From Salminus brasiliensis (Eukaryota > Chordata > Actinopteri > Characiformes > Bryconidae), in assembly GCF_030463535.1 (NCBI RefSeq), contig NC_132900.1:31953742-32017741 (forward strand): 64,000 nucleotides of DNA, written 5' to 3'. The notes under the pieces are model-generated. The model did not search any database. It saw only the letters and a list, made by a program, of their open reading frames with translations, and had not been told where the DNA came from. The position numbers and the translations under genes are program-made. Below are positions 7,507-35,390 of this stretch, one piece after another; positions within the stretch are counted from its first letter, which is position 1, and each line of letters begins with the position of its first letter.

Positions 7507-10500
7507 CTTTAGGGGTGACACACACACACACACACACACACAGTATATCAATGAAAATGTAAAAATAGCAGCTTAAAGATGATACTAGTACTGTCTGACA
7601 CTGTATCTCAGTACAGTACTCAAAATTATACTCGAGCATAAGCAGCAAAAATAAAATAAAACAACAACAACTGAAGCACTGGTTCAAAATTAAAAATCTC
7701 TTTAGACTTATAAAATAAATAACTGCATAAATTAATTATCGATACCCAATAATTTGGTAAAATGCATTGCTATAAGATGTTCTGATGGACTACTGTATTC
7801 AGCTGACAGGGAATCTTTGATATGTTTGTCAAGCAGCCACTAGGGGGAGACAACAGAGCACAGTGTAATTTGCATAGCGCAGTGCAGTTTTAATGTTGCT
7901 ACTAATTAATAAAAAACTAATTAGATGATAACTAATAATATAATATTTGTATCACCCAGTAATTTTTTGTTATCTCATACTTTCACATCTATCTCATGCT
8001 TTCACTTAATTTAGTGTTACTATAGTCCTTTCAGACCAGCCATCACAGCGAGACAAACCTCCACGCTGTCTCAAGAGCCTTGATGCGTCTTAATTATTAG
8101 ATTTGTGTTAATTTGTTTTTCCTCCCTGGGAAGACTGACTTTGTCAGTTTGGACCATTTACTAAATACACCTACTGCCATTAAATTTTGCTTAATTGTAA
8201 GAACGGATGTTTTTTCTGCTGCCTGATGCATTACTGTTTTCATCCTGTTTTTCATGAGTTTGCTGGAGATATCCGAGGTACAATGCTTCACCTCACAGTC
8301 AAACATGACAACATAATGCAAAATACAAAGAAAGAGGTCTGAAAGGGTTAATTTAAAGAGTCTTATGGTTAGTTCATCATCCTACAGGAAGCATGAAGTT
8401 CCAGCGTGGAAATCGACCTTGACCCCAAGCTTTGAACATAAGTATGTGAACAAACGTGGAGGGGCTTATTAGGCTCCCCATGAATAGTGCCCCCAGTGTG
8501 ACTCACCTGCCAGGCCTCCAGTTCCTGGGACAGCTCCAGTTTGCGCTGGATGGCCTCCAGCAGCTGGTTGTTCAGGCACATTATATCGTTTTTACTCCTC
8601 ACCAGTTCCGCCTCCACCGCCGTCTTCCTGCAGTGAAGAGAATATAAACCACCATCACACACAAAACACCAAACTGAGGAGCAGAGTGCAGATAACCGCA
8701 GAGCTGCAGGCCTGCTGCTGTTACAGCTCCATATTAAAGCCTATGGGTTTAGAATGGGGTGCCAGAAAAGCTCCTGTAGGTTTAATGTGTAGGTGTCCCA
8801 ATACTTCTTTTTAGTGTCTATTTGTGTACAATACTGGGCAGAGGTTTTAGGCACCCAATTACAGTCTCATAAACAACAAGGCGTTATCTAGTTGCCTCAA
8901 AAATCGGCCCGATACTTACTTTGCTATAGCATCGTCTCTGTCCTTTATAGCCCGCTGGACAATCTCTTCATCCAGCCTGTTGTCTGCTTTGAGTCTCAGT
9001 TCAGCAATCTCTTCTAAGAGTTGTGTGTTCTGAGAGAGAGAGAGACACAGAGAGGAAGGAAGGAAGGAAATCAGTTATTGTTAGTTCACCAACAGCAACA
9101 CATGGAAATCAGTTTAATACACTTAACTTTCCAGCATCTAACAATTATTCAGTATTTACTTATTATTCAGTATCTACCTGTTTATTAGTATCTATTAATT
9201 ATGTAGTACCTACAAAATGTTTAGTATTTACTTATTATTTAATAAGTACTTATCATTCAGTATCTACTAATTATTCAGTATTTCCTTATTATTCAGTATT
9301 TACCTACACTTATATTCAGTATTTCCTTATTATTTAGTATTTCCTTATTATTTAGTATTTACCTACACTTATATTCAGTATTTCCTTATTATTTAGTATT
9401 TCCTTATTATTTAGTATTTACCTAAACTTATATTCAGTATTTCCTTAGTATTCAGTATCTACTAATTATTCGGTATTCACTAATTATTTAGTATGTTTAT
9501 TATTCAACAAGTACTTCAGTATCTACTAATTCAATTATTCAGTGTTGACTAATTATTCAGAATCTTTTATGAAACTAATGCAACTTTTTAAGTGTGTGCT
9601 CATAAACAGGCCTGTAAAAAAACAACAAGAAATATTATGCTGCAAGTGTGGCTTTCTCAATTTCAACTGTAATCTCAGTCTGGACATTCCTCTGGCGTTC
9701 TCAGCTCATTCCCGGATTTTTGTAACATAGAGACAAAAGGCTCAGTCAGAAGCCGTCAGCCATCGTCTCTGATAGCTTCAACACACAAGCCAGTGTCACC
9801 TGATCACGCAGCTCCTGTATCCAGCCTGTCTTCTCACACTGCACACGCCCCTCTTCCACAATGGGCTGCTTCAGCTCCTGCAGACACAGCGAAACACAGA
9901 TACCTCGCGTCAGTATCACCGGAGCGAGGGCGATGTGAGGTGGACCCTTTGTTTGGGGCCACAGGGAGGGGTGTGATGTGTGCAGGCTCGAGCTCAGGTA
10001 ACCCAGATATAAATGGCTTTCTATTCTGTCTCTCTGCCTCCCTCGCCCTCGCCCTCGCCCTCTCCCCAGCTCGCTCTCATTAAGCTAGTTTTCCAACCCG
10101 CTGCTCCTAAGCCAAGCTTTTGGCAACTGTGTGGAAAGCCAACAGCAACAAAGAGTGCTGACGCATGCCCCACTTATTACATACACTGTGTGTCCAAATG
10201 TTTGTGGACGCCCCTTCTAATGAATGCATTCAGCTACTGTAAGTAACACCTACTGCTGACACAGATGTGCAAATGCACACATACAGCTTGTCTAGTCCCT
10301 GTAGAGAAGTACTGCCAATAGAATAGGACTCTTTTGGCACCTGTTGGCACCATGCTGTCTATTGCCAGGTGTGGGCTAGTAGAGGGGTGTAAAGCCCCCC
10401 AGCATTGGTTAAGACAACTTAAGGGTTAATGACAACTGCTTAATCAACCAAAGCCCTGCTGCAGTGTATCCAGCTGTAATGTGAGAAGATGGTACAGTAA

Positions 10501-13500: not shown

Positions 13501-14375
13501 CAGCTCCTCCATCTGAGCCTGAAGCTCCTGAGATCTGCCCCGAGCGGCCTCCACCTCCTGCCATGCTTCTGTTAACTACACACACATGCAAGCATTAACA
13601 AGGACGTACCTTGTTAGCCTCCTCCTACCTATTCTTCAGTGGTCAGGACACCACAGGACTGACCACCACAGAGCAGGTAGCATTTGGCTGGTGGGCTGGT
13701 GGTGTGGATCAGACACAGCAGTGCTGTTGGAGGTGCCATCTTGGTCATGCTGGTCGACCAGGTTGGTCATGTCGGTTTTACTGGACAACCAACTTGCTCA
13801 TATTGGTCTACCAGTTTGGCCATGCTGGTCATATGCTGGTTGACCAGCTTGGTTAGGGTTGGTCATACTAGACAACAACCTTAGACGTGCTGACCATGCT
13901 GGTCTAGCTTGGTCATGCTGGTCTTATTAGGTGTTTAGCATGGTCCTGGTTGATCATGCTTGCACAGCTAAACCATCAACTCAAACTAAACAATATCCTC
14001 TGCTGGTCAAAAGCTAAGCTGGTCAGCCAGCTTAACCAGCAGCATTACTTTTTGGGTTTGCATACATTTTATTTGCCCAATATCACTTTAACCCTTTCAT
14101 TGCGTTGTCTTTTTCAACTTTGAGGTAATGTTGGGTATCACTCTGCGTCTCTACAGAGCAGAAATCTTGAAGCACCAGATTCCAGACCAACACAGCTCAC
14201 AGAAACTCTGACAGAGAACCACACGGCGGCATGGAATCCTGCATTTCAGGTCTCAGTGTGCAGAACACACAGCACGAGAGGAAAACTGCGTGTGTGTTAT
14301 TTATTCGAAACCAAATAACTGGAAACTGTAAGCAGCTGAGCTGCATGCAAAAACAAACAGTACTACCGCAACCAG

Positions 14376-14415
<40 letters not shown>

Positions 14416-14585
14416 TTGACAACACAGGGACTGTACCTGCTGGGTCTGTGTATGACTCTGCTGTTCCTGCAGGGCCAGGCGGGTGTGTAGCGAGGACACA
14501 CGGTCCCTCAGCTCTGCGTTCTCCTCACACACTGTCTCTAGACGCTGAGTTAGAGTTTGCTCCTGCTGTGTTAGTCTCGCAACCT

Positions 14586-14621
<36 letters not shown>

Positions 14622-15788
14622 TACTACTGCCACTAAACCACTGACACAAATAAATGACCTCCCTTTAGAGCACAGTGTGTTCTGGGTCCAGCAGGCACCT
14701 GACTTATTAGCTACAGCTCTCAGATAAGTTAGTGCTGTGTGGTGTGGTGTGTCATCTACACTGCTGTATCAATGTGCTACCACTGTGATACCGTCCTTCA
14801 GCAAGGTCCAGTAATAACTGTTGTGATGCATTTGACTGATAATAAACATTATATCCATGATATATACTACCCGTCAAAAGTTTTAGAACACTTATTGACA
14901 TTTAAGCACTTCAAGTCCAGTGAATAACCTGTAAAGGTTAAAGACCAGTGACTTCAAATGGTACAAAGGTAAACTGTCAAAGATTTAAAGAAAAAAAATG
15001 AACTACAAACTGAAAAATACTCTAAATTGTATAAATTGTATACAAAACTGTGCTCCTGCATTTACCCAACACTGCACCTTCAGACTGCTCCCACAATGAC
15101 CAGAGAAACAGTCTAAACACAGAACCACAGATCCAGCTTCTAACTCTGAAGTGGAACTCAGTGGAGCTCCTTCCTTTAGAGAAAATTCTGAGGAAGCTGA
15201 AGAGGTCTGGTACAAGAAGAGGTCTGACCCACTCAAATCCACACAACAGCACCGGAAGACCAGTTTCTGAGAGTCAACAGCTGCTTGTGTGATGGGCGAC
15301 TCGCATGACCACACCCTGTATCTCAGCAGATTAAGCCTGGAGCAAGTCTGAGTTTCAGCTGTGAAGAGAAGAAGACCTGGAGCTGCAGCATACTGACTGG
15401 GAGTGACAGAAAATCCTGGTGGTGTTCTAAAACTTTTGACAGGTAGTGTTATGGAATACAATGTTCACATTGCCTCGCAGTTGGAGAGCTGGATTAGTGG
15501 TAATGATGAAGGCACTTTCAGCGGATGTCAATTAGAGCATTTCTATTGGTCCATACATCATGAAAATCAATACACGGTTTCTGCGTGCACTGATTTGTAC
15601 TCCGAAGCAACAGTGTGTGTGTGTGTGTGTGTGTGTGTGGGAGTAGATGTGTGAAGATATGTTTCTCACCTGTTCTCTGAGAGCGTTGAGCAGTTCCTCG
15701 TCCTGTGGTCTGGGATGGCCTCGCTCTCTCAGCTCCTGCTTTAGGCTGTGGAGCTCAGCTGTGACTGTTCGCTCCACCTCCATAGCCT

Positions 15789-15840
<52 letters not shown>

Positions 15841-18800
15841 GATTGAGTTTTATTATTCATAACGCATCATATCTTACTAGTATTGTTGCCTTTTGTCCAT
15901 CAGTTATGTATTAAATTCAATGGATATGTATGTATATTTATATGCTATATTATTAACTTGATTCATGGTCTAAAATCTGAATGTAATAAACAGAAATGAT
16001 CTCACACATACTGACATCACTATGTGATTTAATAGTGGAGACCATTCTGAGGCCCCTGGGAACTGGGCCCTACAGGCCCAATCAGGATTTAATGCCAGTC
16101 TTGGTGTACACTATAGGCTATCCAGTAATAGTCAGTGTTACAGGGTGTACATCTTTGACCTGATAAGGACCTGATAAATGATTCACTTTAATTTTATTGT
16201 TTATTTTTTTCTGAATCATAATATAAAAAAATACACATATATGACCGGACGCATTATGACACTAATTGATAATTCAGAAAATATGCACCAAATATTTTAG
16301 TATTTAGAACTAGCTAGATTTTTATATTTGTTTTTTACCGTCCATTTTATTTACAATCAATTCCGAAATTCTAAAACCCTCGAAAACTAAAGCGCTTCAC
16401 TGAAAATAAATTCTAATGTATTTCTATGGCGATTTTCACAATGAATGTAGTTATAAAGCAGCTTCACAGAGATCCAGGTTCGAGGCCTCTTTTGAGTAAG
16501 CCGACAGAGGCAACAGTGGCAGGAAAAACTCCCTCAGAACAAGTGGAAGAACCCTTGAAAGGAGCTAAGGGGAACTCAAAAGGGGAACCCATCCTCCTCT
16601 GGTCGACACCGGCTAGCACAACTCGGGTCCTCAGTTTCAGCTCGATGCTTTTTAAGACCCCCATCAGTCAGTTTCTCTATCAGTCACTTGTGCGGACACT
16701 AAGTGACGGCATTTTTCTGATAAAATAAATAATAAATAATTACCAAGTGACCAAGCAGTGAGAGAGAGTTATGCTCGCTTGTCAACACCACAACAAAAGC
16801 GGCTGATTAGGAGTCTGGCGAAAGGTCCGCGGCGGCCGGCCTGATTCAGCAGTTTGCGGGACCTCGCGTCAGGTCCCATCACACACGCTTGGTGGAGGAT
16901 CAAAGGCAGGCCCAGCAGATGGAGCGTGGCATCTTGGTCTTGGCAGTGACACATCATCACGCTGCATTAGGCACAGTTTGGGGCGTGGCGGGGGCGTGTG
17001 TGGTTGGGGTAGAGGCCAGCGGGTCAGTTTGTGGTAGAGGTGGACAGTCGGCTAAACGCTGTGACCCAGGCTGGGGGTCATTCAATATGGTGGTTAAAGT
17101 GAACACGCTGTGGGGTCCCAGTAGTCTCCCCACCCCCACCACGGTCGCCCCCCGGGGAGGCAGGAAAAGAAAAGAAGAGGAGGAGATGACCAAGCATAGG
17201 GTGTGGATGTAGGGGGGGTCGTTAGAATTAATTAAGATTAAGATTTAATTGTGCCACTCTTAATGAGATTAGGGGAGGGGTTAAATTGGGATATGAGAGA
17301 CCTTACTAATTTAACATTAACGTCAATGTGAGCACAATAGTGTTATACTCTTATTATAGGCAGGTCTCAGCGCCTATGATAACAGGTTTTCAATATTTTC
17401 ATCTATATCTACAATCTATAATTTATCATTTAATAATAGCCAGCTGGCAAAACAGCAAACACCACAGATGGCTTTAAAAAATTATGTTTAAAGAAATATG
17501 TATATATGTAATATGTATATGAAAGTGTATGAAATACGTAATATCTCAAATCTCTGGTAAACAGTGTCTCAGACGTCAGGTAGTGTATCCATGTTTATTT
17601 TGGGTAATAGTGCTTCTTAAAGGAGCTTTTAGAGGCATTAAACACTTCAGAACATCTGGTTCCCTCCACCACCACCACTGTGAGCAATCATGCCTCTGCA
17701 AGTTTCTCTAGATTCGAGCATTTCAGATTAAACCTAATCCCAGTTCTGGAAACCCTGGTTAAATAAATTAAAGACACACTGGAAGTGCTTCACAGATATT
17801 GCTGAACTCTGCAAGCACTGTTCCTGAGGTACTACATGTTAAATGACCAGCAGTGCTCCAGAATGACCGAGTTTGGAGACCTCCTGGTGTGGCTTAATCA
17901 ACAGCAACAGAAGCAGCTTAGACGCTTGCTTTAAATCCTCAGCTAGACAGGAACCCGTCATCATGTAGTCATTTTATGCTTAAGAGCTTTCATGCCAAAG
18001 CTGCATTATTACACACGCTACATGGGTATTGACAGTTCCCACAGAAAAGCGAACACCAGCGTCTCAAGTCAGGTTTCTGTCCTATGGGAAGATGCTAAGC
18101 TCTGAACTCATGCATTAGCTTCTGTATACTGACTCTGTAACGACACAGCAGTGAATAACTGATCTGATTTAAGGGAAGAAGAGACTCAACAAGAGAGAAG
18201 ATCTTCAACAAATTTCATTCTTAGCTTCCGGACTGACTGAACTCCCTTAAACCGCCCTGAATGCCTGGAACTCTGTAAACTTCCTAGAAGGTGGTGGTGA
18301 AGACGTGCAGTAAGGAAACGTGAGCTATTAAAAGCTTACTGTCCTTGTAAAAGCACCACCTTCTTCCTTGACAATAAAGCCTGTTTTATAGTTCTCGGTT
18401 AGACTTAGAGCACCATTAAAGCTCCATTCAGACATTCTGAAAACCTGAAACTAATATTTAATAAGTTATTAGTCAGCACTGTATCTCTCAGAACTTAGCA
18501 TCGTATATCCTCTTTGAGTTTTCGTCCATGAGTGTTCTCTCATTCCCATTTCCCACCACAGCGATAAAGAAGCCCACAGACGTTCCTCTGGAATAAACAG
18601 TGATAAAAAAAGATATATATGATTATAAGGTGAGCATGATTAGTCATAGTTAACTGGATTTGGTGCGGTGTAGGGTGTAAAAACGTCCAATAATAAGTCC
18701 TATTGTATAGTTTTATGGCTGTATTTGTCTTTTCCGTCCATTCCAATTTATTATTACTACAAATAATTACTGTGATCCTGTGTCTTCTGAAAGGTTTCTA

Positions 18801-21800
18801 AAGTAAGTGATATTATATCTATGACCTATCCTCTATTAGCTTCCCTCAGAAAAAGAGAAAAAAAGACCCGCCCACCTTCAAAATACAGAATCAGAGGGGG
18901 TTTTCCTAGGCTTTAAACCGGAAAGTCTCACTCTGAAGACTATAGTGGCAATTGCTAAAAGAGGTGAGAAAGCAGGTTTCTAATTTTTGCCCAAGTGCCA
19001 CTTTTTTAGTCACCTGTCAAACATTTACTAAAGTAAACACAAGTAAAACACATAGAACTTGAACACTTTAAAGCCCAGAGACAACTATGGAACTCCTATA
19101 GAGATCACACTGCCAGATTTCCCAAATTCTAACCGTAAATAAAATGCTTACCCCAAACCTGTCTATCCCCTTACCTTAGTTCTGTCTAACCCTAATAGCA
19201 AGTATTTCCCCAAATCTGTCTAATCCTAACCTTCAAGCCTAACCCTTATCCCAAATCTGTCCAACCCTAATTAAAGAGCTATAGAATAGTCCCTTATATT
19301 TTTAGGCTGCATGTGCCCTTATTTTACACTATACCATCACCGTTTCAGCGGTAGGAGCCTTTCTTACAATTGCGACAACATCCTGACACGCCTGCTTGTG
19401 ACAGACTTGCAAATAAGTTCCATCAAATGAGCTGTGAACTGTGTCCCTGCTGACCTGCTATCAGGCACACAAACTGACACAAGCTGGCAATAACAGCATC
19501 CATTTCCTTTCCCACAGAATCCAAACAACAGCCTGAACCTAACAGCGCGACAGAAAAGCTCAGACGCTCGAACGTCCCGACATCTGCGGGACGAGAGGCC
19601 AACGAAAGCACCAGCAGATCCTCTGGGGCCTGAGCTTGCTGGTACAGCCCAGCACGGCTTTCCTGGCACTGCGGCTGCTTGTTTTCAGGAGGCTTCTCCC
19701 ACGCTCCCATCCTTCCATCCTCCCTCACACTGCTGCCCCAGATAAGGAGTTTGGCCACTGCTGCCAAACCTCAGTTAGCCCAATAAGCACATATATACGT
19801 AAGCATGCCACCACACACCAAACATCCCTGAGCTCGCTAACTCACCGCTGGAGGCACGGCGTGCTTAGAAACCGAGGAGCCACCATTCACCACGTCTGGC
19901 AAAGGCACGTCTGCGACCCAGTGCATCTCCAAACCTGCCTTGTCTGCAGTGTCTGAAGCTTCCTTAACCCCCTTCAAGAGCAGCGACTCATCCATGGTGG
20001 AAAGCAGCAGCCGAATGAGGCACTTCCTTCTCCTTCGGAGTGGAGATGGACCAGTAGTTCTTGTAAACACGTGTTTTTTCCTCCTTTCTTCCCTGAACTT
20101 TGATTTCTGGAAAAAGCTGGTCACGGGGCCGGCCACCGCCGCTGCTGCCCACGGCCGGACGGCAGGGAGTTAAAGGGTGGGGGCTGAGTTAGATATTACA
20201 CCAGGCCAGGAGCACAACAATGCAAGGCTGCTGCCAGAGCGGAAAGCTCAGCCTTGATGGTTGTCACCTTTAACACTGCATATCTATTCCTGGTACGCAT
20301 AATAACACAGATAAGAAGTCCTCCTCAGTTCGAGCAGTTTTTGGTTGCTAACTCCGTGTTCTGAACAACTGACCTTGGGAAGCCGCAAACTTGGGAGATT
20401 AGATTAGAGGCTGAAAGAAGGGAGAGCAGCATGACTGCCAATGCAATTTTCACCACGTCTGCTGTGAGATCTGTGCTGGTCAGTTCTGTCCTGAACTTGC
20501 TCGGCTGTAAAACAGGTTGTCCAGATTAGGGCTGTGTGTCAGCAAGAACCTGGCAGTATGATACACATCATGACACAGGGGTTACCATTCAGTCTACTGT
20601 GAGATCTCAAAAATGCGTCATGGTTATTATTTTTTAACATCAAATATTAGAAAAATATTTCGTAACTCTACAGCCACTTAAACTTCGAGAGCTGGAAGGT
20701 AAAACTGCAGCCTTCACTAAGTTTCACTAAAAATACATTTTAATTCAGGCCCTAAAGGATTTTCCTCCTGGTCCTGTTTCCCCACAATCAATCTTAATGT
20801 TTTTCTGTCCTCAGGCCCTGATTAAACTTAATGACCATTTAATGCCAACAGTGTTTAAATTAAATTCATATCCTTGTACCCATGAGCCATGTCTCTAAAG
20901 TATGCACTGCATCAACATGAAGGAAGTCTCTTTCTTCCCCTCAGGTGCAAACTCTCAAAAAAGTGTCTGGTGTCATTAATGGCAAGCCATAAAATGTAAC
21001 ACGATATTGACGGGTAATATATAGCACAGAGAAAGAGCTTCCTGACAACAGCAGAACCTGTTTTAGTGAACCAGTTTTTAAAGCATTTTATAATAACCAT
21101 ATACAAGACGTTTCCATCATAGAGAAGAAGCAGAGAACCAGGCAAAGAACCATTCAAGTGTTCAAATGTTCATGGTCTGTTTATACAGACAGTGTAATCA
21201 GGATGCAGTGCTGGGGTACGACAAACAATTAAGGTGAACTTCAGAAAATAATCAATACAATAATGAAGCTGTTTTGGGTCTGAAGAATGATATTTCTTTC
21301 CAAAGTATTCAAGATTTACTGAAGAATGACACTAAAAACACACAGCTTGATAAAAACTATCTTAGGAAAATAGTGAAGAACTTGAGAATTGCTTTCAGGA
21401 CCTTCTTCACTGTGTGTTCTTAAGACAAAACGTCTCCTTAAAACCCACCGAATGCAGTTTTCAGGAGAATTCTGCTGTTCTCCAGAGTTTGTTATATGGG
21501 ATGTGATGAGTTTACTGTGGGATCATCAGTACAAGAGCAGCTTTAAAACACATCAGGAATCTGACCCGGACACCTCGGGCCTCATTCTCCAAATTCTTAC
21601 TAAGACTTTTCTGAAATTAGTTGTTGGGAAAACTCCAAACTGAACTATCAACGTCTAAAATGAAGATACAAGGTTTTTGCAAAACAGCTATTTCAGACTA
21701 TTTCATACCTGAGGACAGTATGAATTTCTTAAGAGGTTTTTGAGCTGGAACAGAATTCACCAGTGAAACAGTGTTACTACGTTTAAAAAAAGATTATTAA

Positions 21801-24800
21801 ATAGTATGATCTTTATGATTTTATAAATTCAAAAGTAAATAAACCATTTGGGATGAAAGAGGAGGGAAAATAATTCTAATCTAATAAATCTAAAATAAAA
21901 GATGATTATAACTGGTTGTTTTCTATATTGTGCATATATGTGTGTATATACTGCAATTCATATCTCTACACAGTTTAGTTACTATCTGTGTAAATGTTTT
22001 TTTCATATTAAATAATTATTTTATTTTGATTAGATCGTTATTTTAGCTTTTTATATATTTATTATATATTTTATACATTAATGTGAGCGGACAGTTATGA
22101 AAGCACTTGTATGAATATGCGCTAAATAGCCCAGACTTTGGGTTTTGGCTCAGTGTGCTGTTGCTGGTGTTGGAGGTGCTGGCCTGCAGCTTCTGTTTTG
22201 ATCACAGTGAGCTCCACCTATACAGTATTTAGTTGTTGTTTTCCTGTCTGGGTCACGTGCTCCTCTCGCTCAGCTTATGCTCTCTCACTCAGGAAGGAAG
22301 AAGGAAAAAAGAGGAGCTGCAGTGTCGACAGTAAACTGACCCATACCGGCAGCCGAGTCGAGCTTGATGTTGATACAGAATCTCAGAACTACATTCAGAA
22401 ACCCCCTGTCCTACAAACCTGTCTGTATGTAATCAGGGGGAGGACAGTGTATTAGGCCCTGCTGATCTGGGAGGTCTGTCTCAGGCCTTTTAACAGCTAT
22501 TGTCAAATATCACTCTGACGCAGTTTAAGTGAGTTCAGCCAGCAGCAGGGTTGTGTAACGCCACTCCTTATCTATTGTCTGCTGCGGCTTTGGTGCAGCT
22601 GGGTGAGCGGGGAGTAAAGCTGGGGGTAAATCCGGGAGCAGGGCTGCTCCGACCCGGAGTCGTGGACGTCTCAGAGACACACAGAGGGAGCGTTAGTTTT
22701 CCTGTCTGTTCTGCTTCATTACTATTCTTACATGAGCAAACAGTGAGCGGCATCTGAGTCTGTCACACTTAGTGTTTTTCAGTCCTGAATGTACACACAG
22801 CACCGTACACACACTACTGTACACACACTACTGTACACACAGCACCGTACACACACTACTGTACACACAGCACCGTACACACACTACTGTACACACAGTG
22901 TGCCAACACTTCTGCTGAATTTCTTACTCCATTGTTTATTCCACAGAAAGAGAGAGAGAGAGAAACTGCGTGGAAATGAAAGAGGGTTAAAGAGAGAGAC
23001 TTTCTTTTTTATTAATATTATTGTATATTTCTATATCAGATGTTTTATTTGTTTTGTTTTCTTAATGTATGATTGCAGTGCTTCGACATACATGTTGAAA
23101 TGTAGATTTGTCACGTCAACACAGTCTTAAACTGAATTAAACTGAATCGAGAGACAGAGAGAGATAGAGACAGTGAGAGAGAGAGATAGAGACAGTGAGA
23201 GAGAGAGAGATAGAGACAGTGAGAGAGAGAGATAGAGACAGTGAGAGAGAGAGAGATAGAGACAGTGAGAGAGAGAGATAGAGACAGTGAGAGAGAGAGA
23301 TAGAGACAGTGAGAGAGAGATAGAGACAGTGAGAGAGAGATATAGAGACAGTGAGAGAGATAGAGACAGTGAGAGAGAGAGATAGAGACAGTGTGAGAGA
23401 TAGAGACAGTGAGTGAGATAGAGACAGTGAGAGAGATAGAGACAGTGTGAGAGATAGAGACAGTGAGAGAGAGATAGAGACAGTGAGAGAGAGAGATAGA
23501 GACAGTGAGAGATAGAGACAGTGAGAGAGAGATAGAGACAGTGAGTGAGAGAGATAGAGACAGTGAGTGAGAGAGATAGAGACAGTGAGAGATAGAGACA
23601 GTGAGAGATAGAGACAGTGAGAGAGAGAGAGAGACAGTGAGTGAGAGAGATAGAGACAGTGAGTGAGAGAGATAGAGACAGTGAGTGAGAGAGATAGAGA
23701 CAGTGAGAGATAGAGACAGTGAGTGAGAGAGATAGAGACAGTGAGAGATAGAGACAGTGAGTGAGAGAGATAGAGACAGTGTGAGAGATAGAGACAGTGA
23801 GAAAGAGATAGAGACAGTGAGTGAGAGAGATAGAGACAGTGAGTGAGAGAGATAGAGACAGTGAGAGATAGAGACAGTGAGTGAGAGAGACAGTGAGAGA
23901 GAGATAGAGACAGTGAGTGAGAGAGATAGAGACAGTGAGTGAGAGAGATAGAGACAGTGAGTGAGAGAGATAGAGACAGTGAGAGATAGAGACAGTGAGT
24001 GAGAGAGATAGAGACAGTGAGTGAGAGAGATAGAGACAGTGAGAGATAGAGACAGTGAGTGAGAGAGATAGAGACAGTGAGAGAGAGATAGAGACAGTGA
24101 GAGAGAGAGATAGAGACAGTGAGAGATAGAGACAGTGAGAGAGAGATAGAGACAGTGAGTGAGAGAGATAGAGACAGTGAGAGATAGAGACAGTGAGTGA
24201 GAGAGACAGTGAGAGAGAGATAGAGACAGTGAGTGAGAGAGATAGAGACAGTGAGAGATAGAGACAGTGAGTGAGAGAGACAGTGAGAGAGAGATAGAGA
24301 CAGTGAGTGAGAGAGATAGAGACAGTGAGTGAGAGAGATAGAGACAGTGAGAGATAGAGACAGTGAGTGAGAGAGATAGAGACAGTGAGTGAGAGAGATA
24401 GAGACAGTGAGAGATAGAGACAGTGAGTGAGAGAGATAGAGACAGTGTGAGAGATAGAGACAGTGAGAGAGAGATAGAGACAGTGAGAGAGAGAGATAGA
24501 GACAGTGAGAGATAGAGACAGTGAGAGAGAGATAGAGACAGTGAGTGAGAGAGATAGAGACAGTGAGAGATAGAGACAGTGAGTGAGAGAGACAGTGAGA
24601 GAGAGATAGAGACAGTGAGTGAGAGAGATAGAGACAGTGAGAGATAGAGACAGTGAGTGAGAGAGATAGAGACAGTGAGTGAGAGAGACAGTGAGAGAGA
24701 GATAGAGACAGTGAGTGAGAGAGATAGAGACAGTGAGTGAGAGAGATAGAGACAGTGAGAGATAGAGACAGTGAGAGAGAGAGATAGAGACAGTGTGAGA

Positions 24801-24825
24801 GAGAGACAGTGAGAGAGAGAGAAAG

Positions 24826-24857
<32 letters not shown>

Positions 24858-27293
24858 TTGATCACTCACTGCCTGCAGTTGTTCTCTGAGCTGTTGGCTG
24901 ATCTCTGAGTGCTGTTGTTGGTTACGGCTCTTCTCTCTCTCCGCCTCACTCAGGGCCCGAGTCAGCCCCTCCACCTGAGCCCTGAGCTCTCGCACGTCCC
25001 GCTCCAGCTCCGCCACCTGACTCTCCCACTGAGCCTGGCAGCCCTGCAGTTTCAGCCGCAGCTCGTGTCTTCCCTGCTCCAGCTCCTGAGGAAGAGAACC
25101 GCAGTTAAGAGGTGGCTCAGTGTCTTACTTCAGAGGCGCTGGGTTGAGTTCTAACCGGCTTCAGTGGATAATTAATCAGAAAGTCCTGAAAAAACAGAAG
25201 CTTCAGTACAGCTGTGCTGACTCAGGACACGCAGCGCTTTCCTATATTTCTACTAAAGGTCCAGGTCCGCTCTACTTCCCCCTGAAGTTTGTATATCTGT
25301 GTGGGTTTCTGGTCCAAAAAACATGAAGAACTAGAGAAGTGTATTTCCTGAGGGACGGAAATACGCAGCGCAGGACGGAAGCACAGGTTCAGTGGATCCC
25401 ACCTCCAGGCAGTTGCGAAGCTGTTGCTATGTGGTTGCTATGGTGTTGCTACATGGTTGCAATTGCATTCCAGGTGGTTGCTTTAATGTTGTTAGCTGGT
25501 TGCTATGGTGTTGCTATGTGGTTGCTATGGTACACCAGGTGGTTGCTATGGTGATTCAGGAGGTTGTTCTAATTTTGTTAAGAGGTTGCTAGATGGCTGC
25601 TGTAGAGTTGTTAGGTGCTGGCTGTGTTTTCTTCTTCTTTTGACTGTAATGTTGTTTAGTGGTTGCTAGGGTGTTGCTGTGGTGCCCCATGTGGCTGCTA
25701 GGGAGTCTCAGGTGGTTGCTAGGGTGATGACAAGTAGTTGCTGTGGTACCCATGTGGTACAGATGGAAAATTCAGGTCCAGAATCAACTTTCAGTAGAAA
25801 AAATGACTTTAAAGTAAGTTAATAAGTTAATAAGTAAATAATTTTATGATATTATTACATCAACGTTAATGAGAAATATCAGATATTTACACGACGCTAA
25901 AGAGATTTTTTTCAGCACAGCTCAACCTGCCATGTGGCCTCGCAGACGTGATGACGCTGAGTACTTCAGTGAGCGTCACAGCCTGAGTCTGAAGTCCCTG
26001 AGTCTGGAGGCCATGAGTCCGGAGAGTCAGCCTGGGTGACTGAGGCCAGTCTCTAAAGCACTTCCATACAACCGCTCAGCTGTGCGGATTAATACGCCAC
26101 ATGTCCAAATGTTTGTGGACACCCCATCTAATGAATGCATTCAGCTACTACACACCCAGTCCTGTAGCGCCGGGCGAGCTGTTCATCTGATGTAACACTG
26201 ACGTCTTAAAGACGATCAATCTCAGATAATCAAATCATATGAAGATAAACGCCAGAGAAGCAAAGCTCACGCCTCAAACAAACCAGGACCTGGTTATTGA
26301 TTAATCAGCTGTGTATTGATGGATATTGCTAGAACTGATAGATAAGGCCGGGACGTCACTCTTCATGACAAACATAAAAAGGGTCACTATCTTAACATTT
26401 ATCAGACATTTGTTTGTAAATCTAATCATTCATTTTTTAGATGTGTTTCTTGATTATCTTCCATTTCCTCTCTTAAGAGGTAAATAACAAATGTCTGCGG
26501 CACAGCTAACGTTCTAGCTAACACTCTACAGCTAATAATGTTCTAGCTAATAGCAATGGCTAATACTCTAGCTTACTCGAGCTGAGTGAATGTTAACTAC
26601 TCCAGCTAATGTTAGCTACTCTAGCTAATGTTACCTAAATGTTAACTACTCTAGCTAATGTTGCCTAGATGTTACCTACTATAGCTAATGTTAGCTAGAT
26701 GTTACCTACTCTAGCTAATGTTGCCTAGATGTTACCTACTCTAGCTAATGTTAGCTATTTAATGGACTAATCCAGCTGGTGTTAATTAGCTATGTAGAAG
26801 TTGTGAGCTGCTCTACGTGTTAATGTTGGTTATAGTTAATTAGATGTTAATTAGATGTTAATTAGATGTTAATTAGGTTTATGTTTGTACCATGAGGAGA
26901 AAAGAAACCCGATCTTTTCCAGCTGTTTAATATTAAAATGTAAAGTATTTAAAGTTTTGATGTGATAAGTGAGGTGTATTGCTCTGTTATAGCTCGGCTC
27001 TCCGGCAGTGTTCCTGCTCCACACACCCGCCTTACCTCCACCCTGTCCGCGTACTGCTCGTGCAGTTTGCCCCTCTCCTCTTTCAGCTGCCGGTTTTCCA
27101 GGAGCAGAGCTTTTCCGAGCTGAGCTGCGAGCAGAACCTCCTCCTCTTTCTGCCGAAGAGCGGCGAGGAGCTCCTCTCCGTCCCGGTAAGCAGGCAGCTC
27201 CTCCTCGGGGTCGAACTCGTACGGGTAGAAGTCCTCCTCCTCCTCCAGCTCCTTTCTGCGAGCCTCATAACAAAGTTCCTCCACTCGACTCAT
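7303..27293 (-). CDS. bicdl2: BICD family-like cargo adaptor 2, whole coding span (10 exons)
   Basis: Joined exons encode 526 residues of almost continuous coiled coil. Members of this family link dynein-dynactin and kinesin to Rab6/Rab13-type vesicles on microtubules (family knowledge). Visible features: an acidic N-terminus; a CC1-box-like element around residues 48-62 with the AAxxG core at A56, A57 and G60, which in BICD-type adaptors contacts dynein light intermediate chain; long heptad regions in exons 2-6; and a conserved C-terminal coiled coil (residues about 405-475) containing the family sequence ELSQELEAWQDDIQ. The QQL segment after WQDD fits BICDL2 better than BICDL1, from memory of the families. 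Human BICDL2 is about 508 residues, so length fits. All nine introns are GT-AG, and eight junctions are phase 0. ATG at 27293 has no competing upstream in-frame ATG that I noticed. The paralogue name (bicdl2 versus a teleost bicdl2-like copy) is the main uncertainty. Confidence 0.87.
7517..7543. repeat. (CA)n microsatellite at the bicdl2 exon 10 acceptor
   Basis: Plus-strand CA; in transcript sense (UG)n ending about 11 nt before the exon 10 acceptor. Confidence 0.95.
8507..8627 (-). CDS. bicdl2: bicdl2 exon 9 (residues about 419-459)
   Basis: 121 nt. Acceptor CTGCAG|GAAG, donor CAG|GTGAGT. Completes the split Lys codon and encodes KTAVEAELVRSKNDIM, then LLEAIQRKLELSQELEAWQ. This is the best conserved part of the family (C-terminal coiled coil, cargo side) and the strongest evidence for the gene identity. 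Confidence 0.93.
8700..8825 (+). mobile_element. Tc1-like transposon right-end fragment in bicdl2 intron 8
   Basis: Contains CTCCATATTAAAGCCTATGG and TTTAGAATGGGGTGCC, then AAAAGCTCCTGTAGG, ending in AGGTGTCCCAATACTT. These are the 3' end and terminus of the Tc1-like element that gave rise to the MITEs here. It fills nearly half of a 292 bp intron. Confidence 0.75.
8920..9029 (-). CDS. bicdl2: bicdl2 exon 8 (residues 383 to about 419)
   Basis: 110 nt, entering in phase 0 and leaving after the second base of a Lys codon. Acceptor CTCAG|AAC, donor AA|GTAAGT. Encodes NTQLLEEIAELRLKAD and then AIKDRDDAIAK. The last part is nearly identical to the AIRDRDEAIAKK signature of the BICDL family. Confidence 0.9.
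9150..9545. repeat. Degenerate AT-rich tandem repeat
   Basis: Repeated TTATTCAGTATTTACT / TTATTTAGTATTTCC modules, about 12-18 bp, over nearly 400 bp in bicdl2 intron 7. Confidence 0.85.
9800..9877 (-). CDS. bicdl2: bicdl2 exon 7 (residues 357-382)
   Basis: 78 nt, phase 0. Acceptor CTGCAG|GAG, donor CAG|GTGACA. Encodes ELKQPIVEEG then RVQCEKTGWIQELRDQ. Assigned because it has consensus splice sites, stays in frame, and lies between well-matched exons 6 and 8. Confidence 0.78.
10180..10408 (+). mobile_element. Truncated MITE (left half) in bicdl2 intron 6
   Basis: Starts ACACTGTGTGTCCAAATG and stops abruptly just after GTAAAGCCCCCCAGCATTGG. The transposase-derived right half is absent. Confidence 0.8.
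10618..10767 (-). CDS. bicdl2: bicdl2 exon 6 (residues 307-356)
   Basis: 150 nt, phase 0. Acceptor CTGTAG|ATC, donor CAG|GTGAGC. Encodes a low-complexity acidic/serine linker (GSTSSGSLENEED) and a helix ending LKSVAERIVHGQTLQ, similar in position to the NELKRLIQSIVDG segment of BICDL1. The linker is shorter than in BICDL1. Confidence 0.8.
10768..13075. other. bicdl2 intron 5, mostly unique non-coding
   Basis: AT-rich intronic sequence with a short (CA)n at about 11535-11560. No internal exon or recognised transposon was seen. Confidence 0.5.
13076..13375 (-). mobile_element. Truncated MITE in bicdl2 intron 5
   Basis: Starts with GGACAAAAGTATTGGGACAC, continues through GTCTCTACTGTCCAGAGAAG and GAGGTCAGGATGTTGG, and breaks off after CGAGAACAGTGG, 20 bp before the exon 5 donor. 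Confidence 0.8.
13396..13575 (-). CDS. bicdl2: bicdl2 exon 5 (residues 247-306)
   Basis: 180 nt, phase 0. Acceptor GTGTAG|TTA, donor GAG|GTGAGT. Encodes coiled coil followed by DTSLLSEMEHSLDAM, which corresponds to the TSLLSEIEQSM motif that marks the hinge between coiled-coil blocks in BICDL1. Confidence 0.88.
13700..14050. repeat. Degenerate TTGGTCATGCTGGTC-type repeat
   Basis: Many imperfect copies of TGGTCATGCTGGT / GACCAGCTTGGT in both senses, so it can fold on itself. Related arrays occur at 35745-35920 and 45478-45560. Confidence 0.75.
14379..14413. repeat. (TG)n microsatellite after the bicdl2 exon 4 donor
   Basis: Plus-strand TG, that is (CA)n in the transcript, beginning about 24 nt into intron 4. 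Confidence 0.97.
14437..14583 (-). CDS. bicdl2: bicdl2 exon 4 (residues 198-246)
   Basis: 147 nt, phase 0 at both ends. Acceptor TGTCCAG|GTT follows a (TG)n tract; donor CAG|GTACAG is followed about 20 nt later by a (CA)n tract. Encodes a heptad region with LETVCEENAELRDRVSSLH, matching the family segment with the form LSATLEENDLLQ. Confidence 0.87.
14587..14619. repeat. (CA)n microsatellite at the bicdl2 exon 4 acceptor
   Basis: (UG)n in the transcript, ending about 4 nt before the exon 4 acceptor. Confidence 0.97.
14865..15447. mobile_element. Internally deleted Tc1-like element with paired termini in bicdl2 intron 3
   Basis: The left terminus CTACCCGTCAAAAGTTTTAG (about 14869) is matched at the right by the inverted GTTCTAAAACTTTTGACAGG (about 15423). 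About 580 bp long. The interior has decayed Tc1 transposase-related sequence (GACCAGTTTCTGAGAGTCAA). TA dinucleotides flank the termini. Confidence 0.85.
15612..15638. repeat. (TG)n microsatellite after the bicdl2 exon 3 donor
   Basis: (CA)n in the transcript, about 32 nt downstream of the exon 3 donor. Confidence 0.97.
15670..15786 (-). CDS. bicdl2: bicdl2 exon 3 (residues 159-197)
   Basis: 117 nt, phase 0 at both ends. The acceptor GTGTAG|GCT is fed directly by a (TG)n tract in transcript sense and has no ordinary polypyrimidine tract. Donor CAG|GTGAGA. Encodes AMEVERTVTAELHSLKQELR and a following coiled-coil stretch. Skipping it would preserve frame. Confidence 0.85.
15789..15837. repeat. 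(CA)n microsatellite at the bicdl2 exon 3 acceptor
   Basis: (UG)n in the transcript with one ATAT interruption; it runs into the acceptor GTGTAG itself. Confidence 0.97.
16440..16700. repeat. Interspersed repeat, family not identified
   Basis: Contains AAAGCAGCTTCACAGAGATC, GCAGGAAAAACTCCCTCAGA and GGGGAACCCATCCTCCTCTG. I recognise these phrases from dispersed fish repeats but cannot assign them to a class. Confidence 0.5.
16790..17215. other. GC-rich block inside bicdl2 intron 2
   Basis: CpG-containing, GC-rich segment in an AT-rich intron. Open frames occur in both strands but none shows a recognisable domain. It could be an internal CpG island or enhancer; function unknown. Confidence 0.35.
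17216..19360. other. bicdl2 intron 2, unique non-coding
   Basis: No transposon, exon or RNA gene recognised. A short run of degenerate CCCTAACC-like phrases occurs at about 19170-19270. Confidence 0.45.
19423..20136 (-). other. Candidate nested exon(s) or alternative first exon in bicdl2 intron 2
   Basis: An ATG in strong context (CACCATGGATGAG) at 19995-19993 opens MDESLLLKGVKEASDTADKA and continues about 50 codons to a consensus donor GCG|GTGAGT at about 19846. Another 110-codon open frame lies just downstream (19767-19423). I recognise no domain, and no acceptor joins the two in frame convincingly. Listed as a candidate only. Confidence 0.25.
20170..22780. other. bicdl2 intron 2, non-coding
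   Basis: AT-rich sequence. The part 21380-21640 shares phrases such as ACACATCAGGAATCTGACC with 38505-38720, so it is probably an old dispersed repeat. No exon seen. Confidence 0.45.
22786..22903. repeat. Minisatellite, 16-17 bp unit
   Basis: Tandem GTACACACACTACT and GTACACACAGCACC units, about seven copies. Confidence 0.9.
23137..24858. repeat. 1.7 kb GA-rich compound satellite in bicdl2 intron 2
   Basis: Built from GAGATAGAGACAGTGAGTGA-type modules with variable numbers of GA dinucleotides, giving unit lengths of about 14-24 bp; roughly 90 copies by eye. On the minus (transcript) strand it is a CU-rich tract with no stop codon in any frame. It begins within about 10 nt of the exon 2 donor. 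Confidence 0.97.
24870..25085 (-). CDS. bicdl2: bicdl2 exon 2 (residues 87-158)
   Basis: Acceptor CTCAG|GAG, donor GCA|GTGAGT, 216 nt, phase 0 at both ends. Encodes coiled coil beginning ELEQGRHELRL and ending REQLQA, colinear with the LEQEKHELRR segment of BICDL1/2. The donor lies only about 10 nt from a 1.7 kb GA-rich satellite. The reading frame stays open across the donor into that satellite. Confidence 0.9.
25405..25760. repeat. Degenerate minisatellite, GGTTGCTATGGTGTTGCTAT type
   Basis: About 15 imperfect copies of a 10-20 bp TGGTTGCTATGG module in bicdl2 intron 1. Confidence 0.85.
26095..26152 (+). mobile_element. Solo MITE terminus fragment
   Basis: TGTCCAAATGTTTGTGGACA and the adjoining TGAATGCATTCAGCTACT only; the rest is absent. 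Confidence 0.7.
26500..26880. repeat. Minisatellite, about 32-36 bp unit, plus short ATTAGATGTTA repeats
   Basis: Units of the form TACTCTAGCTAATGTTAGC with an alternating GATGTTACC segment, followed at 26836-26880 by three to four copies of TTAATTAGATG. Confidence 0.85.
27036..27293 (-). CDS. bicdl2: bicdl2 exon 1 (residues 1-86)
   Basis: Starts at ATG 27293-27291 (context AGCCATGAG) and ends at donor GAG|GTAAGG, phase 0. Encodes an acidic leader rich in E/D/Y, then the CC1-box-like helix containing EEVLLAAQLGKALL. It lies in a GC-rich region, as expected for a first coding exon. Confidence 0.9.

Positions 27294-35337: not shown

Positions 35338-35390
<53 letters not shown>

What the first reader, a model, noticed from the sequence alone, without database searches (positions are those of the whole stretch)
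14379..15837. bicdl2 exons 3 and 4 are each bracketed by complementary (UG)n and (CA)n tracts
In transcript sense the order is (UG)n at 15837-15789, exon 3, (CA)n at 15638-15612, intron 3, (UG)n at 14619-14587, exon 4, (CA)n at 14413-14379. UG and CA repeats pair perfectly, so each exon could be looped out. Such pairing is known to promote exon skipping or back-splicing. Both exons are phase 0 (117 and 147 nt), so skipping either or both keeps frame and shortens the coiled coil by 39, 49 or 88 residues. The two ends of intron 3 could also pair with each other, giving a competing structure that depends on repeat length.
Basis: partly seen in the sequence, partly recalled or inferred. Interest (0 to 1): 0.75.

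Follow-up and report, generated by a model that had tools for sequence, protein, structure and literature searches.

The report
Complementary repeats around two fish exons
Two exons of a fish motor-adaptor gene sit between matching repeat tracts of a kind already known in fish to help splice introns; the layout is real, but there is little sign so far that it makes the exons skip.

Summary
In a bicaudal-D-related adaptor gene (protein identical to a Salminus brasiliensis record), four UG/CA tracts flank exons 3 and 4 at the stated places (within 1 nt), always UG before an acceptor and CA after a donor, more often than random placement gives. The reading 'exon-looping device' is only partly supported. 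Intron 3 carries CA at its 5' end and UG in place of a polypyrimidine tract at its 3' end: the layout of the known fish AC-GU introns, whose ends pair and splice without U2AF2. Exons beside such introns are easily bracketed. Intron 2 has only the UG half and intron 4 only nine UG nucleotides, so exon looping remains a real competitor. Predicted energies of 'two exon loops' and 'intron 3 bridge inside an outer UG:CA helix' are nearly equal, and a two-repeat change in some tracts switches between them. In 135 retrieved fish proteins (capped lists), exon 3 is missing in one and exon 4 in two; 20 transcript-like entries keep both. The commonly missing exon is exon 7, which has no such tracts. Phase 0 is not special: boundaries throughout exons 1-7 are phase 0. 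Best reading: a new member of the AC-GU class, exons 3 and 4 mostly constitutive.

The parts
15789..15837 (-). (UG)n tract, 49 nt with one UAUAU interruption; occupies the polypyrimidine-tract position of the intron 2 acceptor (UG3)
   Evidence: longest pyrimidine run 1 nt in the 30 nt before the acceptor triplet
15670..15786 (-). exon 3, 117 nt, phase 0-0, 39 aa
   Evidence: protein identical to P0001
15613..15639 (-). (CA)n tract, 27 nt, 30 nt after the start of intron 3 (CA3)
14584..15669 (-). intron 3, 1086 nt, CA tract at 5' end and UG tract at 3' end: AC-GU intron layout
   Evidence: class described in PMC7404189 section 4.1, PMC9198270, PMC12962679
14866..15447 (.). repeat-like element inside intron 3 with inverted ends (exact over 15440-15422 and 14891-14873, about 26 nt with one mismatch); folds away about 570 nt of the intron
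   Evidence: arms share 18.87 of 19 expected pairs in the ensemble
14588..14618 (-). (UG)n tract, 31 nt, in the polypyrimidine-tract position of the intron 3 acceptor (UG4)
   Evidence: longest pyrimidine run 2 nt
14437..14583 (-). exon 4, 147 nt, phase 0-0, 49 aa = exactly 7 heptads in length
14378..14413 (-). (CA)n tract, 36 nt, 23 nt after the start of intron 4 (CA4)
13578..13586 (-). short UG run (9 nt) at the acceptor of exon 5; weak possible bridging partner for CA4
   Evidence: pairing with CA4 under the 0.3 expected pairs printed
24870..25085 (-). exon 2 (216 nt); its donor is followed by a CU-rich array, not a CA tract, so intron 2 lacks the 5' half of the AC-GU layout
19846..19995 (-). 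probable alternative first coding exon 1b (50 aa) in intron 2, predicted to splice to exon 3
   Evidence: phase 0, donor gtgagt; similar sequence directly before exon 3 in P0004, P0049 and (part of it) P0135
7303..27293 (-). coding span of the BICD-related adaptor gene, 10 coding exons, 526 aa
7518..7542 (-). (UG)n tract, 25 nt, near the acceptor of exon 10; no CA partner at the start of intron 9

Best explanation
Intron 3 is a new member of the known fish class of AC-GU introns: CA near its 5' splice site pairs with UG at its 3' splice site, brings the two sites together and replaces the polypyrimidine tract/U2AF2 step (layout shown; pairing predicted; U2AF2 independence inferred from the class). 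Introns 2 and 4 carry one half each (intron 4 also a 9-nt UG run), which is why exons 3 and 4 appear bracketed. Exons 3 and 4 are mostly constitutive; the bracket is mainly a by-product that at most causes low-level skipping, exon 4 being the likelier because its 49 aa are 7 whole heptads (inference).
For: UG sits at the acceptors of introns 2 and 3 with pyrimidine runs of only 1 and 2 nt, against 3-30 nt at the other 17 mapped acceptors. All 6 tract-bearing splice sites of 38 are in the class direction, none reversed. Citing papers state that fish introns have dinucleotide repeats at opposite ends that pair and splice without U2AF2 (passages of PMC9198270, and PMC12962679; section 4.1 of PMC7404189). 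An inverted-end element folds away about 570 of the 1086 nt of intron 3, bringing its ends closer. Exon 3 is present in 134 and exon 4 in 133 of 135 retrieved proteins, and both in 20 of 20 transcript-like entries.
Against: In the model ensemble the intron 3 bridge takes only about a third (10 of 28 pairs), and before CA4 is transcribed the exon 3 loop wins outright (26.2 expected pairs; the bridge is under the 0.3 printed). The bridge alone (-550.8) is 39 kcal/mol less stable than two exon loops and 13 less than the exon 3 loop alone (-563.5). Introns 2, 4 and 9 do not have the full layout. Conservation of the tracts in related species could not be examined. Two protein models lack exon 4 or exons 3+4 exactly (P0007, P0121). 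Protein lists are capped and may hide isoforms.
Confidence: 0.5

Rival explanations
1. One reading: UG and CA tracts pair across exons 3 and 4, loop them out singly or together, and give regulated skipping or circular RNA.
For: Two exon loops are the minimum-energy fold; both-loop ensemble -589.7 against -589.4 kcal/mol for the rival topology. The exon 3 loop forms first as the RNA is made. P0007 lacks exactly exon 4; P0121 lacks exactly exons 3 and 4.
Against: Exon 3 absent in 1 and exon 4 in 2 of 135 retrieved proteins; 0 of 20 transcript-like entries lack either. Of 12 proteins listed in a search aimed at an exon 3-5 junction, only P0007 spans it at high identity (93%; the others that cover the whole stretch have 36-47%). 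Exon 7, without tracts, is the recurrent missing exon (15 of 133).
Confidence: 0.15
2. The tracts act single-stranded as protein sites: TDP-43 (or CELF, recalled) on UG at the acceptors lowers exon use, hnRNP L on CA after donors alters it; pairing is secondary.
For: UG-rich sequence upstream of the CFTR exon 9 acceptor binds TDP-43 and causes skipping (passages of PMC12171016); CA repeats are bound by hnRNP L (passages of PMC2777938 and PMC13174678). The UG tracts here (24.5 and 15.5 units) exceed the TG11-TG13 of the CFTR passages.
Against: Does not by itself explain UG at the end and CA at the start of the same intron; no binding data in this species.
Confidence: 0.2
3. Neutral microsatellites: UG/CA repeats are common in this genome and are tolerated near splice sites without function.
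For: 25 tracts or tract pieces of 10 nt or more in 64 kb; several stand far from the mapped splice sites.
Against: Placement and orientation are non-random in the mapped genes, although five of six sites come from one gene and the null is simple.
Confidence: 0.15

Closest known systems
Fish AC-GU introns with paired ends (Lin et al., Genome Res. [quoted passage not shown] title seen in reference lists, the paper itself not held)
   Same: CA tract after the donor and UG tract at the acceptor of the same intron, in a fish, with no polypyrimidine run at the acceptor (intron 3).
   Different: Flanking introns carry half sets, so the tracts also bracket exons 3 and 4 and can pair across them with equal predicted stability.
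CFTR exon 9 (TG)mTn acceptor with TDP-43
   Same: Long UG tract just upstream of an acceptor with a poor pyrimidine tract; an RNA-structure effect of that repeat is also in the title of Hefferon et al. 2004, seen only in a reference list.
   Different: No complementary CA tract after the exon is mentioned in the passages read; no evidence of TDP-43 action here.
Inverted repeats flanking exons that promote skipping or circular RNA (Alu pairs and similar)
   Same: Complementary sequence on both sides of an exon.
   Different: Simple repeats of 27-49 nt next to the splice sites; no circular RNA and no transcript-level skipping shown.

Membership tests
Fish AC-GU bridged introns | CA (AC) tract near the 5' end and UG (GU) tract near the 3' end of the same intron | tested here: met
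   Intron 3. Intron 4 only weakly (9-nt UG); introns 2 and 9 not met.
Fish AC-GU bridged introns | Predicted pairing of the two intron ends | tested here: inconclusive
   CA3:UG4 helix in about a third of the ensemble, equal in energy to exon loops only together with an outer UG3:CA4 helix.
Fish AC-GU bridged introns | Acceptor without a polypyrimidine tract (feature inferred from U2AF2 independence) | tested here: met
   Longest pyrimidine run 2 nt at the intron 3 acceptor, 1 nt at intron 2; 3-30 nt at the other 17.
Fish AC-GU bridged introns | Splicing independent of U2AF2 | not testable with these tools
   Needs depletion or minigene assays.
Exon-bracketing inverted repeats (skipping or circular RNA) | Complementary sequences on both sides of the exon | tested here: met
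Exon-bracketing inverted repeats (skipping or circular RNA) | Exon skipped or back-spliced in transcripts | tested here: inconclusive
   Protein entries only: exon 4 absent in 2 of 135, exon 3 in 1 of 135; 0 of 20 transcript-like entries. Back-splicing not testable.
BICD-related dynein adaptor (BICDR/BICDL) | Sequence homology to BICDR1 over the coiled coils | tested here: met
E 1.2e-67 to PDB 6f1u chain X, query residues 34-480. My Pfam scan gave 0 families at E 0.001, although the precomputed domains of P0001 are PF28219 and PF27654.

The most novel reading that the evidence does not exclude
The four tracts form a two-state, repeat-length-tuned splicing switch: either both exons are looped separately, or intron 3 is bridged inside an outer helix that brackets exons 3 and 4 as one unit. 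Two microsatellite units would move a fish between single-exon and double-exon outcomes, changing a dynein-adaptor coiled coil by 49 aa (seven heptads, register kept) or 88 aa (register shifted) between its dynein-binding and dynactin-binding motifs.
Probability: 0.08. Interest if true: 0.75.

Novelty: new member of a known kind. Interest (0 to 1): 0.38.

Why it matters
If AC-GU pairing really helps splice many fish introns, exons next to such introns must somehow avoid being looped out by the same tracts. This locus, where one full AC-GU intron is flanked by half sets and two topologies are predicted to be equally stable, is a compact test case for how the cell chooses, and for whether microsatellite length variation alters splicing between individuals.

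Tried and rejected
Whole-genome count of CA-after-donor and UG-before-acceptor: not possible. Conservation of the tracts in other fish: I had no fish genomic DNA to compare. Phase 0 as evidence of cassette design: rejected, boundaries of exons 1-7 are all phase 0. Folding as proof: rejected, any UG and CA tracts of this length pair. A pUG quadruplex at the UG tracts was considered (abstract and passages of PMC12962679) and left open. Lin et al. 2016 could not be read, nor the 2016 RNA Biology review; what I say of the class rests on passages of PMC9198270 and PMC12962679 and on section 4.1 of PMC7404189, the rest on recall. Paper searches showed me no paper, in the listings, on exons bracketed by UG and CA in fish; the library is partial and I read no listing beyond titles and abstract starts there.

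Caveats on counts. The protein lists are capped: the best 120 of 966 hits, the best 120 of 311 and all 12 of the junction search; they are representatives of 90% clusters, so rare isoforms can be hidden. 133 come (the gene's own record P0001 included), P0134 and P0135. Exon absence was called at under 35% coverage in one pairwise alignment; four of the 15 exon 7 cases (P0026, P0047, P0051, P0052) still align 23-26% of it. P0121 also lacks part of exon 8, which suggests an imperfect gene model. 'Transcript-like' means the 20 entries of source 'lgn', on contigs of 1.6-2.8 kb that hold nearly the whole frame of a 20-kb gene; that they are transcripts is my inference, and 15 of them are 545-aa entries probably of one group. 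In one search the splice sites of the ppp5c-like gene were set by eye from translated pieces (10 acceptors, 10 donors used); its tenth donor is one base off, and its last exon was not found; the gene name is from recall of the protein, not from a search. The names CC1 box (AAQLG, aa 56-60) and Spindly motif (LLSEM, aa 287-291) come from matching by eye to descriptions in PMC8047447 and PMC7615804 and from recall.

Full report
What is there. The window carries, on the minus strand, a gene for a bicaudal-D-related dynein adaptor. Ten coding exons (27293-7303) join to 526 aa, identical over the full length to a database protein named 'BICD family-like cargo adapter 1' of Salminus brasiliensis (P0001); it matches 'BICD family-like cargo adapter 1' chains in the PDB (E 1.2e-67). 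The four tracts lie where stated, within 1 nt.

More than chance. With 19 acceptors and 19 donors of this gene and a neighbouring gene that I take for ppp5c (recalled protein), 6 of 38 sites have a tract in the direction UG-before-acceptor or CA-after-donor within 60 nt, and none in the reverse direction. Random placement and orientation of the 25 tracts reached at most 5 in 50,000 trials. The six are the acceptors of introns 2, 3 and 9 and the donors of introns 3 and 4 here, and one acceptor of the neighbour. The null does not model base composition near splice sites, and five of six come from one gene.

What the tracts look like one intron at a time. Intron 3: CA near the start, UG at the end, just before the acceptor. 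Intron 2: UG at the end; its start is a CU-rich array (tandem array 23150-24857; sequence). Intron 4: CA near the start, nine nt of UG at the end. Intron 9: UG near the end only. At the acceptors of introns 2 and 3 the longest pyrimidine run in the 30 nt before the acceptor triplet is 1 and 2 nt; at the other 17 acceptors it is 3-30 nt. So UG has taken the place of the polypyrimidine tract.

Known class. Passages of PMC9198270 and PMC12962679 and section 4.1 of PMC7404189 describe fish introns in which AC/CA and GU/UG repeats at opposite ends pair and bring the splice sites together; the first two add that this replaces U2AF2. They rest on Lin and colleagues 2016, not held. Intron 3 has this layout. 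An exon with such an intron, or half of one, on each side is bracketed by UG and CA as a matter of course.

Folding. For 14300-15900 the minimum-energy fold loops out both exons (UG3:CA3 26 pairs, UG4:CA4 30 pairs). Ensembles with other tract pairings penalised give -589.7 kcal/mol for two exon loops, -589.4 for the intron 3 bridge inside an outer UG3:CA4 helix, -563.5 for the exon 3 loop alone, -562.5 for the exon 4 loop alone, -550.8 for the intron 3 bridge alone and -527.7 without tract pairing. Extending to exon 5 changes little. In two shorter prefixes, ending after CA3 and after UG4, only the exon 3 loop appears, so order of synthesis favours exon looping, against my preferred reading. 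An element with inverted ends inside intron 3 pairs almost fully and removes about 570 nt from the distance between CA3 and UG4, which favours the bridge. Changing one tract by two units, eight variants: UG4 -2 or CA4 +2 gives the nested state only; UG4 +2 or CA4 -2 gives two exon loops only; UG3 -2 and CA3 +2 shift mostly to nested; UG3 +2 and CA3 -2 change little. These are equilibrium estimates for naked RNA.

Isoform evidence. From two capped searches 133 proteins, the gene's own included, were compared exon by exon. Missing: exon 3 in 1 (P0121), exon 4 in 2 (P0007, P0121), exon 5 in 1 (P0009), exon 6 in 2, exon 7 in 15, exon 9 in 1, exon 10 in 3, exons 1, 2 and 8 in 0. Twenty entries from short contigs that hold nearly the whole frame (transcript-like, 15 of them probably one group) all have exons 3 and 4; two lack exon 7. 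A third search with a 44-aa stretch across an artificial exon 3-5 junction listed 12 proteins; only P0007 matched across the junction at high identity (93%), and two new ones (P0134, P0135) contain exons 3 and 4. P0007 is a UniRef entry of Pygocentrus nattereri lacking exactly exon 4; P0121 is a Bagarius yarrelli entry lacking exactly exons 3 and 4 and part of exon 8.

Protein consequences. The best heptad register is the same in windows from residue 139 to 285, through exons 3 and 4 and into exon 5 (a simple scoring of my own). Exon 4 is 49 aa, seven heptads, so its loss would keep the register; loss of exon 3 (39 aa) or both (88 aa) would shift it. The exons lie between the CC1-box-like AAQLG (aa 56-60) and LLSEM (287-291), which fits the Spindly consensus given in PMC7615804 (passages). 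PMC8047447 (passages) notes that the distance from the CC1/CC2 boxes to the Spindly box varies by up to 63 aa between BICD2 and BICDR1 although dynactin has a defined length, so a 49-aa change is of natural size. Whether it would work is unknown.

A probable alternative start. Intron 2 contains a coding exon 1b (19995-19846, 50 aa, phase 0, donor gtgagt). Related sequence stands directly before exon 3 in P0004 (Serrasalmus, score 142) and P0049 (Electrophorus, 75), there inside longer models with upstream parts, and more weakly in P0135 (Salvelinus 'isoform 2', score 46, 0 of 1000 shuffles as high), where it lies in a different N-terminus that replaces exons 1-2. The predicted short isoform would lack the CC1 box. 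The UG-bearing acceptor of exon 3 would then serve two donors, which argues for exon 3 being a fixed exon (inference).

Verdict. Decisive data would be RNA-seq junctions, related genomes and a minigene, none available here.

Noticed in passing
window 19995-19846 (minus strand): Probable alternative first coding exon 1b inside intron 2; the isoform it starts would lack the CC1-box region.
   Followed up: partly
exon 7, window 9877-9800: The recurrent missing exon of this gene in fish proteins: absent in 15 of 133 including zebrafish, and in 2 of 20 transcript-like entries; no UG/CA tracts beside it here.
   Followed up: partly
exon 5, window 13575-13396: Piranha isoform X2 (P0009) lacks exactly exon 5, which holds the Spindly-like motif LLSEM.
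   Followed up: partly
window 14866-15447: About 580-bp stretch with inverted ends in intron 3, perhaps a non-autonomous DNA transposon; not identified.
   Followed up: partly
window 23150-24857: 1.7-kb CU-rich (transcript sense) tandem array starting about 12 nt after the exon 2 donor.
   Followed up: no
window 35339-35389: A 51-nt UG tract about 50 nt before an acceptor (35289) of the ppp5c-like gene on the minus strand.
   Followed up: partly
window 7507-7542: UG tract followed by CACCCCTAAAG at the acceptor of exon 10, an unusual acceptor without a CA partner in intron 9.
   Followed up: no
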